Of a stretch of DNA of 64,000 bases, positions 3,242 through 40,596 are shown one piece after another. Origin of the DNA: Niabella soli DSM 19437. Lineage in GTDB: Bacteria > Bacteroidota > Bacteroidia > Chitinophagales > Chitinophagaceae. Below the pieces are notes generated by a model. That model worked only from the letters and a program-made list of their open reading frames with translations. It searched no databases and had not been told where the DNA came from. Position numbers and translations under genes: made by a program. The stretch spans positions 2,294,001-2,358,000 of the forward strand of contig NZ_CP007035.1 of assembly GCF_000243115.2 (NCBI RefSeq), given 5' to 3'. Numbering within the stretch: the first letter of the stretch is position 1; each line of letters starts with the position of its first letter.

Positions 3242-3249
3242 GCTTGCTG

Positions 3250-3320
3250 AATGCAGAACGCGCAATGCGGAACGCAAACCAACCTTGAACCTGAAACTTT
3301 GAACCCTGTAACCTGAATCC
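3250..3320. repeat. Heptad array, 10 units, switching word family
   Basis: Four AAYGCNN words (from 3250) pass without a phase break into TTGAACC/TGAAACT words. One 8-bp unit at 3306-3313 is the only slip. The array lies between two genes that converge. Confidence 0.8.
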
Positions 3321-21738: not shown

Positions 21739-21830
21739 CTTCCTGCGCGGGAACCACAATACCTTTTCAATCCCGATAGCCAGCAGGACAAATTCGCAAA
21801 TTAACTAATATTGGTGCGGATCCAGAAACC

Positions 21831-21872
21831 AGTATTCAGTATCAAACATCAGACATCGAACATCAGACATCA
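21831..21872. repeat. Heptad array, 6 units (GACATCA type)
   Basis: Six words in strict 7-bp phase (AGTATTC, AACATCA, GACATCG and so on) end 18 bp before the queE ATG. Confidence 0.85.
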
Positions 21873-22474: not shown

Positions 22475-22530
22475 AACGCGCAATGCTGAATGCGTAACGC
22501 ACAATGCTGAACGCCTAATGCTTAATGCAC
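22475..22530. repeat. Heptad array, 8 units (AAYGCNN type)
   Basis: Eight words in perfect phase starting 3 bp after the queE stop codon (AACGCGC, AATGCTG, AATGCGT and so on). Every word fits AAYGCNN. This is the cleanest array of the type in the window. Confidence 0.9.
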
Positions 22531-22553
22531 GGGGAACAGCATTCGATTGAACC

Positions 22554-22581
22554 AGCAACCTGTAACCTGTGACCTGTAACC
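22554..22581. repeat. Heptad array, 4 units (TGTAACC type)
   Basis: Four words in phase (AGCAACC, TGTAACC, TGTGACC, TGTAACC), just upstream of the promoter of the M42 peptidase gene. Confidence 0.8.
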
Positions 22582-30068: not shown

Positions 30069-30072
30069 AAAA

Positions 30073-30080
30073 CAAACCTA
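30073..30080 (-). promoter_or_regulatory. -7 element (TAGGTTTG) of nth
   Basis: A perfect TAnnTTTG on the minus strand ends 4 nt before the nth ATG. A TTG at 30096-30098 (minus strand) is a poorly spaced -33 candidate. Confidence 0.55.
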
Positions 30081-30098
30081 CGTATTTTTGGGTTACAA

Positions 30099-30175
30099 GA
30101 TACTAGATACTGGATATAGGATACCGGATGTTTTGTACGCTTCAAGCATCTAGTATCCAGTATCTCACATCAAGC
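30099..30175. repeat. Heptad array, 11 units, with internal inversion (GATACTN type)
   Basis: Five GATACTN-like words (from 30099) continue in the same 7-bp phase into complementary ATCCAGT/ATCTAGT words (to 30175). The two halves can therefore fold back on each other. Confidence 0.85.
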
Positions 30176-30214
30176 ACTTGTAGCAATAATATTGTTAACC
30201 TAAAACAAATCACC

Positions 30215-30589
30215 ATGAGTTATCGTAATTTGGAAATTTGGCAACTGGCAAAAGAATCGGCTATTGAAATACATAAGATGTCGCTCCAATTGCCCAAATT
30301 TGAATTATTTGAGGAAGGACAGCAAATACGTCGCTCGAGTAAATCTGTGCGATCAACAATTGTTGAGGGATATGGGAGACGACGATATAAAAATGAATTT
30401 ATTCGGTTTCTGGTTTATGCGCAGGCTTCCAATGACGAAACAATAGATCATCTTGAAATATTATTTGAAACCGACTCTTTGACGAACGAAATATGGTTTA
30501 AAGAACTTAGAGAAAAGCTGGATATTCTTGGCCGGAAAATCAATAGATTTATTCAGGCTGTAGAATCAGGGCATATAAGCGCCAAATGA
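30215..30589 (+). CDS. Four-helix-bundle protein (S23 / 23S rRNA intervening-sequence protein family)
   Basis: 124 residues from ATG 30215. An ATG at 30128 would translate the heptad array and is rejected. The sequence follows the TIGR02436/S23 pattern: [19 protein letters not shown] at the start, [25 protein letters not shown] in helix 2, [22 protein letters not shown] in helix 3 and a final amphipathic helix. Members occur in intervening sequences of 23S rRNA genes and as free-standing genes of unknown role. They resemble the Avd accessory protein of diversity-generating retroelements. No rRNA, reverse transcriptase or variable repeat lies nearby. It is flanked on both sides by heptad arrays of the same word family. 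Confidence 0.85.
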
Positions 30590-30597
30590 AACGATGA

Positions 30598-30653
30598 GAT
30601 ATTAGATACTTGATCGAGTATCCAACATCCAGGATCCAGCATCAAGTACCAAG
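30598..30653. repeat. Heptad array, 8 units, with internal inversion (GATACTT / GATCCAG type)
   Basis: Eight words in phase begin 9 bp after the stop codon of the four-helix-bundle gene. The first three are GATACTN-like, the last five complementary (TATCCAA, CATCCAG). It is the same word family as the array upstream of the gene. Confidence 0.85.
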
Positions 30654-30682
30654 CCTGATAATTATTAACATTAATCACATAT

Positions 30683-31342: not shown

Positions 31343-31490
31343 GTGAATAGTCAATAGTCAATGGATCAGTAGTAAACGTGAGGCATGATGCAGTTGGGGT
31401 AATGTGAATGCTAAACGCTCAACCTACAAGGCTTCAACAATGATGCAATGAGCACTTATTGACTATTGACCTTTCACCATTCACTATTCC
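31335..31490. repeat. Heptad-phased spacer filling a convergent gene junction
   Basis: The array starts inside the last codons of the metzincin gene and ends past the stop codon of the convergent histidine kinase gene. GTCAATA words lead (31335-31371), then mixed words, then AAYGCNN words (31407), then complementary CTATTGA/CCATTCA words up to 31490. From 31407 to 31490 twelve words are in unbroken 7-bp phase. Confidence 0.8.
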
Positions 31491-35246: not shown

Positions 35247-35282
35247 ATATTGAAGTCGTTTACACTTTCAGAGTCCTTTGCA

Positions 35283-35390
35283 TTTCCCGCAGATAACGCC
35301 GATTTTTTACGCTGATATCCGCAGAAAATCGATCTGCGGATATCAGCGGTGTATTAGATCTGCTTAAAATCAGCGGGAAAGCCAGATGCA
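35283..35390. repeat. Nested inverted-repeat element with a 16-bp perfect palindrome core
   Basis: The core arms (35310-35325 and 35333-35348) are perfect 16-bp inverted copies of the CGCTGATATCCGCAGA type around a 7-nt loop. Outer arms TTTCCCGC...AGCGGGAAA extend the pairing to about 35283-35390. Related fragments occur at 1309-1353 and 60604-60680. It lies after the RDD gene and could also terminate transcription. Confidence 0.75.
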
Positions 35391-35484
35391 ACATTGCTTC
35401 TATAAAAAGTTTAAACAACTTTAGTAAAAAATTAAAGCCGGCTGAAAAATCAACCGGCTTTTAATAAACTATTTTTTAGGAGAC

Positions 35485-35736: not shown

Positions 35737-35744
35737 ATAATTTA

Positions 35745-35784
35745 ATGTGGAAATGTGGAAATGTGGAAATGTGGAAATGTGGAG
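35745..35784. repeat. Perfect tandem octad array, 5 x ATGTGGAA (last unit ATGTGGAG)
   Basis: Five units from 35745, four of them identical, begin 8 bp upstream of the atpC start on the minus strand. They lie inside the atpD-atpC operon. Confidence 0.9.
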
Positions 35785-35808
35785 TTAGTAATTTAATCAG
35801 CCTATTTC

Positions 35809-35841
35809 CACATTCTCATATTTTTCACATTCTCACATTAT
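35809..35841. repeat. Octad array, 4 units (CACATTCT type)
   Basis: CACATTCT words, one stretched to 9 bp, run to within 4 bp of the atpD stop codon. They are complementary in sense to the ATGTGGAA array 25 bp away, so the two can pair in the transcript. Confidence 0.8.
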
Positions 35842-35845
35842 TTTA

Positions 35846-37538: not shown

Positions 37539-39311
37539 ATGGTTGTTCAACGCGCGCTGATCGCAATTTTTATTATATCCCTTTTTACGATTGTTTCCTG
37601 TAAACACGAAGAAAAAAAAGTAAGAGAGAAAGTGATCCGGGTGGAAAAACCGGTCACCAAGGTGGATATCACCATTGATACCGCCAATGCCTTTAATCAA
37701 CTATTTATAGATAGTTCACTGGTAAACAAATTTTTATCATCCGGAGACCTGAGCGACACTCTTATCAACCGGATTAAAAGTTTCTACAACAGCCGCAACT
37801 ACCAATATGCGTGGTTTTCCCCTGAGGGATTGCCGGAACACACGGTTTCCTTCTGGAACATGCTTAAGAATTACCTCAATTATTCAAAAGACTCCACCGT
37901 CTATAATAAGGCGCTGGCTGCCAAAATGGAATCAATCATTAACGCCGATAGCTTACGGATCCGGAACGACTCCACTTACCAGCGCCTGGAACTTTCACTC
38001 ACCAAATATTTTTATTTGTTTGCCGATCACGCCTATGCCTATGATCCCGGTTTCGACATGAAAACGCTGGAATGGTATATTCCCAAGAAGAAATTAACGC
38101 TCGAAGGCATGCTCGATTCCGCTATTGCGGGAAAAGGACAGTTTTCCGAAGCTTACGCCCCTACCAATCCGCAGTATAAAAAACTGCGCCAGCAACTGCA
38201 AAAATACAAGGCCATAAAAGACGCCGGGGGCTGGCCAAAAGTGAATAGCCCGGTAGAAGTTATGAAGCGCGGGTTTAAGGACCCTTCCGTTAAGACGCTA
38301 AAAAAACGCCTGAAAATAGAAGGATTCCTGGAAGGAGAAGACAGCACATTTACTAATACTTATGATTCTGCGCTTGCAGATGCGGTAAACGCCATTAAAA
38401 AAGTTTACGGTTATAAGGAAGACGGCACCGCAGGAAAAACATTTTTAAAAGATGTGAACGTTTCCATTGACGAGCGGATACAACAGATCCTTATCAATAT
38501 GGAGCGCATGCGCTGGATACCTACGGAAACCAGGGATTCCGGTCGCGCCATTATGGTAAACATACCCGAGTATAAAATGCATGTTTATGAAAACGGGCGA
38601 CCGGCCTGGGATATGAATGTAGTGGTGGGCAAAGAAAGCAATAACACTACCGTGTTTACCGGTGTTTTAAAGACGGTGGTATTCAGCCCGTACTGGAATG
38701 TTCCTACCAGCATCGTAAAAAAAGAGATGCACGGGCACCCCAGCACCGGCTATCTTGAAAAAAACCATATGGAAATTGTGAATGGCCAGGTTCGACAGAA
38801 ACCCGGCCCCTGGAACTCTCTGGGGTTGGTGAAGTTCCTGTTCCCGAACAGTTATAATATCTATTTTCATGATTCGCCGGCAAAAAGCCTGTTCAATAAG
38901 GACAAACGCAGTTTCAGCCACGGATGCATCCGCTTGCAGGAGCCGTCAAAATTTGCTGCTTATGTGCTGGACGATTCCGCCCATTGGGATGCATACAAAA
39001 TAGATTCCGCCATGCACAGCTATAAAGAAAAATATGTGCGCGTAAAGCACCCCATACCGGTGCTGATCACTTATTTCACTTCCTGGGTAGATGATGAGGA
39101 CGCATTGAACTTCAGGGAGGATATTTACGGGCACGATGCGATAATAGCCAAGAAGATGTTCCTCAACAGCGTGGGCACCACCTACTCCCGCCAAAAGGCC
39201 ATCAGGGATAGTTTACAGCAGGTAAAGGATTCCATCAAGGCTAAGGAACTGGAATTAAAACAGAAAAGAAAAGCCGATAGTTTGCGGCGGGTGGCCCGAG
39301 GGATACGCTGA
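37539..39311 (+). CDS. L,D-transpeptidase lipoprotein (YcbB-like, YkuD domain)
   Basis: 590 residues. A lipoprotein signal ends in FTIVSC (Cys about residue 21). A large N-terminal helical part (about 45-235) resembles the scaffold domain of YcbB-type enzymes. A peptidoglycan-binding-like stretch follows (KDPSVKTLKKRLKIEGF... about 245-300). The YkuD catalytic domain ends in SFSHGCIRLQEP with His461 and nucleophile Cys463. The C-terminal 30 residues are a Lys/Glu/Asp-rich coil. Such enzymes make 3-3 cross-links in peptidoglycan in the periplasm. The spacer to the next gene is a 12-unit heptad array starting at the stop codon. Confidence 0.92.
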   Translation: MVVQRALIAIFIISLFTIVSCKHEEKKVREKVIRVEKPVTKVDITIDTANAFNQLFIDSSLVNKFLSSGDLSDTLINRIKSFYNSRNYQYAWFSPEGLPEHTVSFWNMLKNYLNYSKDSTVYNKALAAKMESIINADSLRIRNDSTYQRLELSLTKYFYLFADHAYAYDPGFDMKTLEWYIPKKKLTLEGMLDSAIAGKGQFSEAYAPTNPQYKKLRQQLQKYKAIKDAGGWPKVNSPVEVMKRGFKDPSVKTLKKRLKIEGFLEGEDSTFTNTYDSALADAVNAIKKVYGYKEDGTAGKTFLKDVNVSIDERIQQILINMERMRWIPTETRDSGRAIMVNIPEYKMHVYENGRPAWDMNVVVGKESNNTTVFTGVLKTVVFSPYWNVPTSIVKKEMHGHPSTGYLEKNHMEIVNGQVRQKPGPWNSLGLVKFLFPNSYNIYFHDSPAKSLFNKDKRSFSHGCIRLQEPSKFAAYVLDDSAHWDAYKIDSAMHSYKEKYVRVKHPIPVLITYFTSWVDDEDALNFREDIYGHDAIIAKKMFLNSVGTTYSRQKAIRDSLQQVKDSIKAKELELKQKRKADSLRRVARGIR

Positions 39312-39394
39312 ATGCAGAATGCTAAACGCTAAATGGCAATCGACAGACGTAAAACGTCAAACGTTAGCCATCAAACCTCAAACATCCGACATTT
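39311..39394. repeat. Heptad array, 12 units, filling the whole spacer
   Basis: Exactly 84 bp in unbroken 7-bp phase. AATGCAG/AACGCTA words change through ATCGACA and AACGTCA to AACATCC and GACATTT. It begins on the last base of the transpeptidase stop codon and ends 5 bp before the next ATG. Confidence 0.9.
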
Positions 39395-39399
39395 GTAAC

Positions 39400-40596
39400 A
39401 TGAACATTATTGAGGTAACCACGCCGGAGCTGGCAAAATCATTTTTACTGGTAAACGTTATCATCAACCGGGGAGATCCGAATTATATCCGCCCGCTGGA
39501 TAAAGACGTGGAAGAAGTATTTGATCCTGCAAAAAATAAGGCCTTCCGTTCCGGAGAAGCGATCCGCTGGATCCTGAAAGATGCCGATGGTAAGCTAATA
39601 GGCCGTATCGCGGCGTTTGTTAATAAAAAATATAAAACCAAGGGCGATGACGGCCCCGTGGGCGGAATAGGATTTTTTGATTGTATTAACGACCAACCCG
39701 CCGCCAGCCTGCTATTGGATGCGGCTAAGGCCTGGCTGCAGGAAAGAGGAATGACGGCGATGGACGGTCCTATTAATTTCGGGGAGCGCGATAAATGGTG
39801 GGGATTGGTGGTGGAAGGTTTTGATCCGCCGTTGTATTGCATGAACTATAACGCACCTTATTATAAAGACCTGCTGGAGCACTATGGCTTTAAGCCCTTT
39901 TTCTACCAGGCCTGTTTTAGCCTTGACGTAAAGAATCTTTTACAGGAGAAATTTTACGCACGGCATGCTGCGTTGGCAAGGGATCCCAATTTTTCAGCCG
40001 TCACCATTCAAAAGAATAACCTGAAAAAATACGCCAAAGATTTTACGCTCGTTTATAATAAGGCCTGGGCGGGGCATGGCGGTTTAAAACAAATGGAAGA
40101 ACGGGCGGTTTTAAAACTGTTCCAAAGCATGAAGGCGGTGATGGACGAGCGGATCTGCTGGTTCCTCTACTATAAAGAAGAGCCGATCGGGATCTGGCTC
40201 AACCTGCCCGACCTCAACCAATGGTTCAAATACCTCAATGGAAAGTTCGGGTTGATCGGCAAACTAAAATTCCTCTGGTACAAAAGAACCCGGCCCAATA
40301 AAAAATTTGTGGGCCTGGTTTTCGGTATTGTGCCGGAGTATCAGTCCCGGGGCGTTGATGCTTACTTCATTGTAGAGGGCGGCAAAGTGATCCAGGATTG
40401 CCAGGTTGGCCCGGACGGGTATAAAGTGGGCAACACCATTTATGATCAAAATGAACTGCAATGGATCGGAGAGTTTAATCCTAAAATGATCAATGTGGCA
40501 AAATCGCTGGGCACTTATCTCAGCCGCAGGCTGTGCACCTATCGCTATAATTTCGACCGGGAAAAAGAATTTAAAATGCACCCGGTATTGCATTGA
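39400..40596 (+). CDS. GNAT-like acyltransferase-fold protein, unknown substrate
   Basis: 398 residues from ATG 39400. The ATG at 39319 would add 27 residues of translated heptad array and is rejected. The N-terminal half has a GNAT-like arrangement: IRWILKDADGKLIGRIAAFVN (strand pair), GGIGFFDCINDQPAASLLLDAAKAWLQERGMTAMDGPINF (loop-helix-strand) and YKDLLEHYGFKPFFYQACF. The C-terminal half repeats a similar order (CWFLYYKEEPIGIWLNLPDL; GLVFGIVPEYQSRGVDAYFI). It could be a double-GNAT protein. It is cytoplasmic. No specific substrate can be inferred. Confidence 0.7.
   Translation: MNIIEVTTPELAKSFLLVNVIINRGDPNYIRPLDKDVEEVFDPAKNKAFRSGEAIRWILKDADGKLIGRIAAFVNKKYKTKGDDGPVGGIGFFDCINDQPAASLLLDAAKAWLQERGMTAMDGPINFGERDKWWGLVVEGFDPPLYCMNYNAPYYKDLLEHYGFKPFFYQACFSLDVKNLLQEKFYARHAALARDPNFSAVTIQKNNLKKYAKDFTLVYNKAWAGHGGLKQMEERAVLKLFQSMKAVMDERICWFLYYKEEPIGIWLNLPDLNQWFKYLNGKFGLIGKLKFLWYKRTRPNKKFVGLVFGIVPEYQSRGVDAYFIVEGGKVIQDCQVGPDGYKVGNTIYDQNELQWIGEFNPKMINVAKSLGTYLSRRLCTYRYNFDREKEFKMHPVLH

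What the first reader, a model, noticed from the sequence alone, without database searches (positions are those of the whole stretch)
39311..39394. A whole gene spacer is one 12-unit heptad array that switches word family in phase
The 84-bp run starts on the last base of the L,D-transpeptidase stop codon and ends 5 bp before the next ATG. It begins with AATGCAG/AACGCTA words and ends with AACATCC/GACATTT words, with no phase slip. If arrays grew by simple slippage, one word should dominate. The drift suggests stepwise copying with errors, or assembly from pre-existing arrays.
Basis: seen in the sequence. Interest (0 to 1): 0.6.

Follow-up and report, generated by a model that had tools for sequence, protein, structure and literature searches.

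The report
Drifting heptad array filling a spacer
The gap between two genes of a Niabella-like bacterium is filled by a slowly drifting 7-letter DNA repeat; similar repeats across this bacterial phylum often flank small "intervening sequence protein" genes as matched arms, which hints at a little-noticed class of fast-changing hairpin elements.

Summary
Confirmed: 39311-39394 is twelve degenerate heptads from the stop codon to 5 bp before the next ATG, with no phase slip (lag-7 identity 0.64; 0 of 20,000 shuffles). The "switch" is a graded drift. The nearest relative keeps the array one heptad shorter, 81 against 88 bp. Such arrays are common in this Niabella-like genome. Period-7/8 arrays also flank PF05635 (23S rRNA intervening-sequence protein, IVP) genes as complementary arms, in Niabella and in a Bacteroidota sample, G-rich before the gene and C-rich after it. 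Words differ between loci and species. The atpD-atpC spacer holds an IVP gene or remnant in 5 of 17 Niabella genomes and an array without one in 11 of the other 12. The target has no IVP gene, folds weakly (z -1.7), and no IVP remnant was found in 60 related spacers. Favoured mechanism: heptad-step duplication plus substitution (well supported); descent from the 3' arm of an IVP hairpin element is possible but unproven.

The parts
39311..39394 (+). the twelve-unit heptad array
   Evidence: lag-7 identity 0.636, 0 of 20,000 shuffles; cline
37539..39311 (+). upstream gene, L,D-transpeptidase (YkuD) whose stop codon abuts the array
   Evidence: Pfam PF03734 4.1e-23
39400..40596 (+). downstream conserved gene, 398 aa, no Pfam or NCBIfam family at 0.001
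39388..39395 (+). GACATTTG, one letter from the Bacteroidota -7 promoter element TAnnTTTG (consensus recalled, not from a call); possible promoter at the array end
   Evidence: sequence; same letters in G016
30094..30164 (.). heptad array 5' of an IVP gene
30215..30589 (+). IVP (four-helix-bundle) gene, absent from the matching G016 spacer
   Evidence: PF05635 3.7e-26, TIGR02436 2.5e-26; absence
30594..30653 (.). heptad array 3' of the IVP gene
35737..35845 (-). atpD-atpC spacer (gene names are my recognition): complementary octad arms, no gene
   Evidence: fold z -6.74; comparison of 17 genomes
22475..22581 (+). spacer with AAYGC heptads followed by AACCTGT heptads
21822..21872 (+). array that passes from CAGTATC words to AACATCA/GACATCA words
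3245..3320 (+). AAYGC heptads followed by AACCTTG-type heptads between convergent genes

Best explanation
The 84 bp are a degenerate heptad array of a class common in Bacteroidota intergenic DNA. Shown: it is real, graded, one heptad longer than in the nearest relative, and made of word families found at many other loci. Shown for the class: arrays of complementary words often stand on both sides of a PF05635 (IVP) gene, G-rich before it and C-rich after it; the same slots in related species hold an IVP gene with arms, an array or hairpin without a gene, or nothing. Inferred: units are gained and lost one at a time by slipped copying, mutate, and spread locally, which makes a cline in constant phase; in two-armed elements pairing keeps the arms matched; loss of the gene leaves a hairpin or one arm. 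The target lies just before the downstream start, is C-rich and has no partner, so it may be a lone 3' arm, or an array of the same kind that never had a gene. It probably has no folded-RNA role now, beyond supplying DNA next to, and perhaps part of, the downstream promoter.
For: Array and cline. One-heptad difference and conserved 3' end with G016. Genome-wide word families: 205 against 1 and 31 against 0 control matches; in-phase continuation 17% against 4-10%. IVP genes flanked by arrays: 40 Niabella loci against 256 genes, both-side score 9 against 4 (p 7e-17), inverted complementarity 17 against 11 (p 4e-15); in-locus controls, 39 Niabella loci p 9e-14 and 1.5e-17, 30 phylum loci p 6e-9 and 3e-11; genes with spacers on both sides, p 3e-6 for each measure. 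Polarity: 25 of 27, 21 of 22, 27 of 29, 17 of 19. Same slot, different contents. The target's word types also flank IVP genes at L166 and L172.
Against: No IVP gene or remnant (E up to 1) in the 60 of 77 read orthologous spacers that are 60 bp or longer. The target folds only weakly, z -1.72 with 11 of 200 shuffles as good. Most array-bearing spacers in the sample are not strong hairpins: 7 of 24 have self-complementarity z above 3, against 25 of 169 array-free spacers. Length differences from G016 are mostly not single heptads. Period 8 alone is not enriched at Niabella IVP genes (p 0.83). Against the strictest control only 7 and 5 of 12 IVP genes of this genome exceed the 95th percentile.
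Confidence: 0.55

Rival explanations
1. Plain minisatellite: slippage on a chance seed plus point mutation, with no historical link to IVP elements; IVP genes merely sit in array-rich spacers.
For: No IVP remnant in related spacers; weak fold; most arrays are single; cline expected from local duplication.
Against: It does not by itself explain complementary, strand-polar arms around IVP genes or the alternation of IVP gene and array in one slot. That speaks to the class, less to this array.
Confidence: 0.4
2. Mosaic assembly: the array was put together from pre-existing arrays by recombination or conversion.
For: Word families are dispersed; junctions between families keep phase elsewhere; in spacer 31343-31483 half of the spacer carries other words than in G016.
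Against: Graded rather than blocky similarity in the target.
Confidence: 0.2
3. Regulatory array: repeated binding sites for a protein acting on the downstream gene.
For: It ends next to a possible promoter; the 3' end is conserved with G016. A binding role was proposed for TAACTGA arrays (PMC4679880, passages).
Against: Units diverge along the array and words differ between relatives.
Confidence: 0.08
4. Coding: the array is an N-terminal extension of the downstream protein starting at 39319.
For: The frame is open from 39319.
Against: The G016 spacer has an in-frame TGA; many relatives align only from about residue 21-28 or have stops in the longer frame.
Confidence: 0.02

Closest known systems
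23S rRNA intervening sequences with an S23p/IVP gene, e.g. the Coxiella IVS (PMC4990558, abstract and passages seen)
   Same: same protein family (PF05635); heptamer repeats before the gene that vary in number between strains; the IVS lies in a helix and is excised by RNase III according to that paper
   Different: here the genes lie between protein genes; the arms are long degenerate arrays; RNA processing is untested
Nostoc trnL intron P6b stem (PMC4476775, two passages seen)
   Same: stem built from 7-nt repeat motifs, with two exchangeable motif classes and similar structure
   Different: one group I intron, no IVP gene; here dispersed intergenic arrays with many word families, several of them single-armed
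TAACTGA intergenic heptamers of Beggiatoaceae, Cyanobacteria and some Bacteroidetes (PMC4679880, passages seen)
   Same: heptamer arrays in spacers, often just before start codons; 7-nt indels between two strains
   Different: one fixed word there; degenerate, drifting words here
Avd of diversity-generating retroelements (PMC10053308, passages seen)
   Same: structural relative of PF05635 proteins according to that paper
   Different: no reverse transcriptase or template/variable repeats were looked for here
Cyanobacterial short tandemly repeated repetitive (STRR) heptamers (recalled)
   Same: heptanucleotide tandem repeats in spacers
   Different: units there are near identical as I recall; not compared here

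Membership tests
Bacterial heptanucleotide tandem arrays | tandem 7-bp units beyond chance | tested here: met
   0 of 20,000 shuffles
Bacterial heptanucleotide tandem arrays | unit-step length change between relatives | tested here: met
   81 against 88 bp for the target; other spacers mostly differ by other lengths
Bacterial heptanucleotide tandem arrays | near-identical units (as in STRR or TAACTGA arrays) | tested here: not met
   mean distance between units about 3 of 7 letters (matrix)
23S rRNA intervening sequence (IVS) | lies inside a 23S rRNA gene | tested here: not met
   lies between two protein genes; no Rfam match in the window
23S rRNA intervening sequence (IVS) | carries an IVP/S23p gene | tested here: not met
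   none in the target or in 60 related spacers; met at 30215-30589
23S rRNA intervening sequence (IVS) | complementary arms forming a stem | tested here: not met
   target z -1.72, 11 of 200 shuffles as good; met at 35737-35845, z -6.74
23S rRNA intervening sequence (IVS) | excision by RNase III | not testable with these tools
   needs RNA data
IVP-flanking array class proposed here | C-richer array at 3'-arm position, before a downstream gene | tested here: met
   21 C, 13 G; position
IVP-flanking array class proposed here | partner array of complementary words | tested here: not met
   spacer self-complementarity z 2.4, weak fold
Diversity-generating retroelement | reverse transcriptase with template and variable repeats | not tested
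   no search made

The most novel reading that the evidence does not exclude
Bacteroidota carry a phylum-wide class of IVS-like hairpin elements between protein genes: a PF05635 gene, or nothing, between two strand-polar, complementary arrays of 7- or 8-bp units. The two arms are rewritten together into new words by unit copying within and between arms, perhaps with help from the IVP protein, and the elements are cut out of mRNA. The target array is a one-armed relic of such an element.
Probability: 0.25. Interest if true: 0.8.

Novelty: new variant of a known kind. Interest (0 to 1): 0.55.

Why it matters
Heptamer repeats and IVP (four-helix-bundle) genes are two separate puzzles: repeats without a known function and a common gene family without one. 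The finding that IVP genes in Bacteroidota tend to be enclosed by matched period-7/8 arrays joins them. It predicts that many small spacers are hairpin elements or their remains, and slots such as atpD-atpC, where related species carry different words, make it testable how paired repeats change together.

Tried and rejected
(1) Arm polarity by A+C content was weak: 31 of 51 left and 33 of 50 right. The G-against-C axis was taken up after seeing that and the sequences, so it is partly post hoc, also for the phylum set. (2) Direct, not inverted, similarity of IVP flanks: weak in Niabella (p 9e-5; 8e-4), absent in the phylum sample (p 0.48). (3) Placement beside stop codons: 10 of 19 arrays within 12 bp, combined p 0.006; suggestive only. 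(4) Coding reading: rejected (see rivals). (5) Rfam: no match in the window. (6) Ten paper searches listed no paper linking IVP genes in protein-gene spacers to heptad or octad arrays, apart from the Coxiella heptamers inside 23S rRNA; several lists were capped (e.g. 20 of 878, 30 of 4,836, 30 of 60) and only open-licence papers are held, so this does not prove novelty. (7) IVP genes outside Bacteroidota were not examined.

Rows dropped or weak: L161 (short contig) is but not. L056, L063 and L080 were skipped. In one search L039 and L041 gave spacers of 0 and 2 bp, and the L039 reading looks wrong. G003, G004 and G012 could not be read at sufB-sufC; G016 is missing at hisA-hisF. Ties are left out of the polarity counts. 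The IVP loci of other genomes are the best-scoring ones picked by the tool, not a random sample; the 12 of this genome are all that the search listed. Genes in the 384-kb sample come from a simple caller of my own. Only the first 100 or so of the 205 AAYGC places were listed.

Full report
What is there. The 84 bp at 39311-39394 are twelve degenerate heptads in constant phase, from the last base of the TGA of an L,D-transpeptidase gene (Pfam YkuD) to 5 bp before the ATG of a conserved gene without a Pfam or NCBIfam family. Lag-7 identity is 0.636 against 0.278 in dinucleotide shuffles, and 0 of 20,000 shuffles reach it. All 10 of 63,916 windows that score as high start at 39303-39312. Distance between units rises with their separation (permutation p 0.0002), so the two word families are ends of a cline bridged by AACGTTA and AACGTCA.

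Relatives. Titles of the nearest records place the window in or near Niabella, Chitinophagaceae. The closest genome, G016, has its match on a contig of 83,772 bp, the length of JAGIAQ010000004.1 (Niabella sp. BIN26). Its spacer is 81 bp against 88 here, with the same order of word types; anchored at the ATG the two agree at 0.73, against 0.43-0.67 at other heptad shifts. Of the eight nearest named loci, L035-L042, six have an array at period 7 or 8 (p 0.01 or lower of 200 shuffles, lower of the two periods) and two gave no usable spacer; the words differ. Further out it is 8 of 69 read spacers. In Chitinophaga, L103 has three CTATCGA-type units where L090 and L092 have two, and is 7 bp longer (211 against 204).

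Not all change is by heptads. Among the seven array-bearing spacer pairs aligned with G016, the total length differences are 523, 9, 157, -5, 28, 487 and 7 (88 and 81 for the target). Clean 7-bp gaps are seen inside pairs 17 and 39. In pair 16 half of the spacer carries other words.

How common. In 384 kb of this genome (the window and sixteen 20-kb stretches) segments scoring 13 or more number 17 at period 7 and 7 at period 8, against 1 and 0 in locally shuffled sequence; no other period from 3 to 13 exceeds 4, while multiples such as 14 (16) and 21 (6) follow period 7. With my own simple gene caller, 24 of 193 spacers of at least 40 bp carry an array (score 11 or more). In the whole genome AAYGCNNAAYGCNNAAYGC occurs 205 times against 1 for the reversed control, and RACRTCNRACRTCNRAC 31 times against 0. 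Around 51 AAYGC runs that I held, the target among them and some from both strands of one site, RAY trinucleotides are enriched at phase 0: 17.0% downstream and 17.6% upstream, against 3.6-9.8% at the other phases. In-phase change of words is therefore not peculiar to this spacer.

The link to IVP genes. The spacer 30069-30682 holds a gene absent from G016, with arrays on both sides. It is a PF05635 / TIGR02436 protein (3.7e-26 and 2.5e-26; PDB 2gsc 2.2e-4). The family is in 17 of 17 Niabella genomes searched, 1 to 20 matches each, in 88 of 118 Bacteroidota genomes, and in 0 of 14 control genomes. Forty Niabella loci against 256 genes: the lower of the two sides' array scores has median 9 against 4 (p 7e-17), inverted complementarity of the flanks 17 against 11 (p 4e-15); period 8 alone is not enriched (p 0.83). 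With shifted controls in the same loci the result holds in 39 Niabella loci (p 9e-14 and 1.5e-17) and 30 loci of the phylum sample (p 6e-9 and 3e-11). The best period reaches score 10 in 32 of 39 (25 at 7, 5 at 14, 2 at 8) and in 23 of 30 (13 at 7, 6 at 8, 2 at 14, one each at 9 and 13). Against 114 genes with spacers on both sides, the 12 IVP genes of this genome still differ (p 3e-6 for each measure), though only 7 and 5 of 12 exceed the controls' 95th percentile. Among arrays scoring 8 or more, the 5' ones have more G than C in 25 of 27 (Niabella) and 21 of 22 (phylum), the 3' ones more C than G in 27 of 29 and 17 of 19, ties left out; this axis was chosen after a weaker one.

Same slot, different contents. 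The names atpD, atpC, sufB, sufC, hisA and hisF are my recognition of the sequences. Between atpD and atpC, 5 of 17 Niabella genomes hold an IVP gene or remnant (G002, G006, G010; G004 in two pieces; G014 a 23.6-bit remnant), with arm-to-arm duplex z from -1.8 to -3.2 but only weak periodicity (scores up to 9 at period 7). Of the other 12, 11 have an array scoring 11 or more at period 7 or 8 and G008 has none. Fold z is -2.3 or lower in 9 of 12, -1.9 in G001, -0.3 in G003 and 0.1 in G008; in G012 the fold pairs parts of the 5' half with each other. Words fall into several families (AATGTGRR, AATTTGAA, TTAGCTAA with ATTATCAC, CAAATTT, CAAACCTT). This genome and its near relative G016 differ in the words of both arms, which suggests that arms change together. 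At sufB-sufC, 14 of 17 genomes could be read; states run from a full gene with arms, through eroded genes, to short spacers without one. At hisA-hisF, 3 of 16 loci have gene and arms, four have 0-7 bp, and by eye G005, G006, G009 and G015 keep an array-like stretch before hisF without a gene. In a quick protein tree four atpDC copies form one clade (100) and four of six sufBC copies another (100), which fits inheritance in place and repeated loss, with arm words changing faster than the gene.

What this says about the target. Its word types also flank IVP genes in this genome (AAYGC at L166, GACATC at L172). It lies where a 3' arm would lie and has more C than G (21 and 13). But it has no partner, a weak fold (z -1.72), and the IVP model finds nothing in the 60 related spacers of 60 bp or more, out of 77 read. 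So unit-step duplication with substitution is well supported as the maker of the present sequence, while descent from an IVP element is a possibility that I lowered. Seventeen of 24 array-bearing spacers in the sample also lack strong self-complementarity: either relics are many, or arrays arise without IVP elements.

Print. PMC4990558 reports heptamers before the S23p gene of the Coxiella 23S IVS, varying between strains, and excision by RNase III (passages). PMC4476775 reports a stem built of 7-nt motifs of two classes in Nostoc trnL introns (passages). PMC4679880 reports TAACTGA arrays with 7-nt indels between two Cyanothece strains (passages). My ten paper searches listed nothing that ties PF05635 genes between protein genes to flanking heptad or octad arrays; several lists were capped and only open-licence papers are held.

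Noticed in passing
window 35256-35421: A dispersed repeat of about 150 bp that folds into a long hairpin (-60 kcal/mol); related copies lie in many places of this genome and of G016. No Rfam match.
   Followed up: partly
L127 9454-10029 (spacer 39): An insert of nearly 490 bp, absent from G016 at this place, lies within or beside a GTGAATA-type heptad array; part of it matches another place on the same G016 contig at 90%.
   Followed up: partly
window 39400-40596: A 398-aa protein with matches in 37 of 39 genomes searched (own included) but no Pfam or NCBIfam model at 0.001.
   Followed up: no
L134 15232-15641: A convergent spacer of about 400 bp made almost wholly of heptads of several families, with a long internal duplication visible by eye.
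   Followed up: no
L142, L178: Flanks of two IVP genes contain AACTGAT/CTGATAA words like the published TAACTGA heptamer; whether those published arrays sit near IVP genes was not checked.
   Followed up: no
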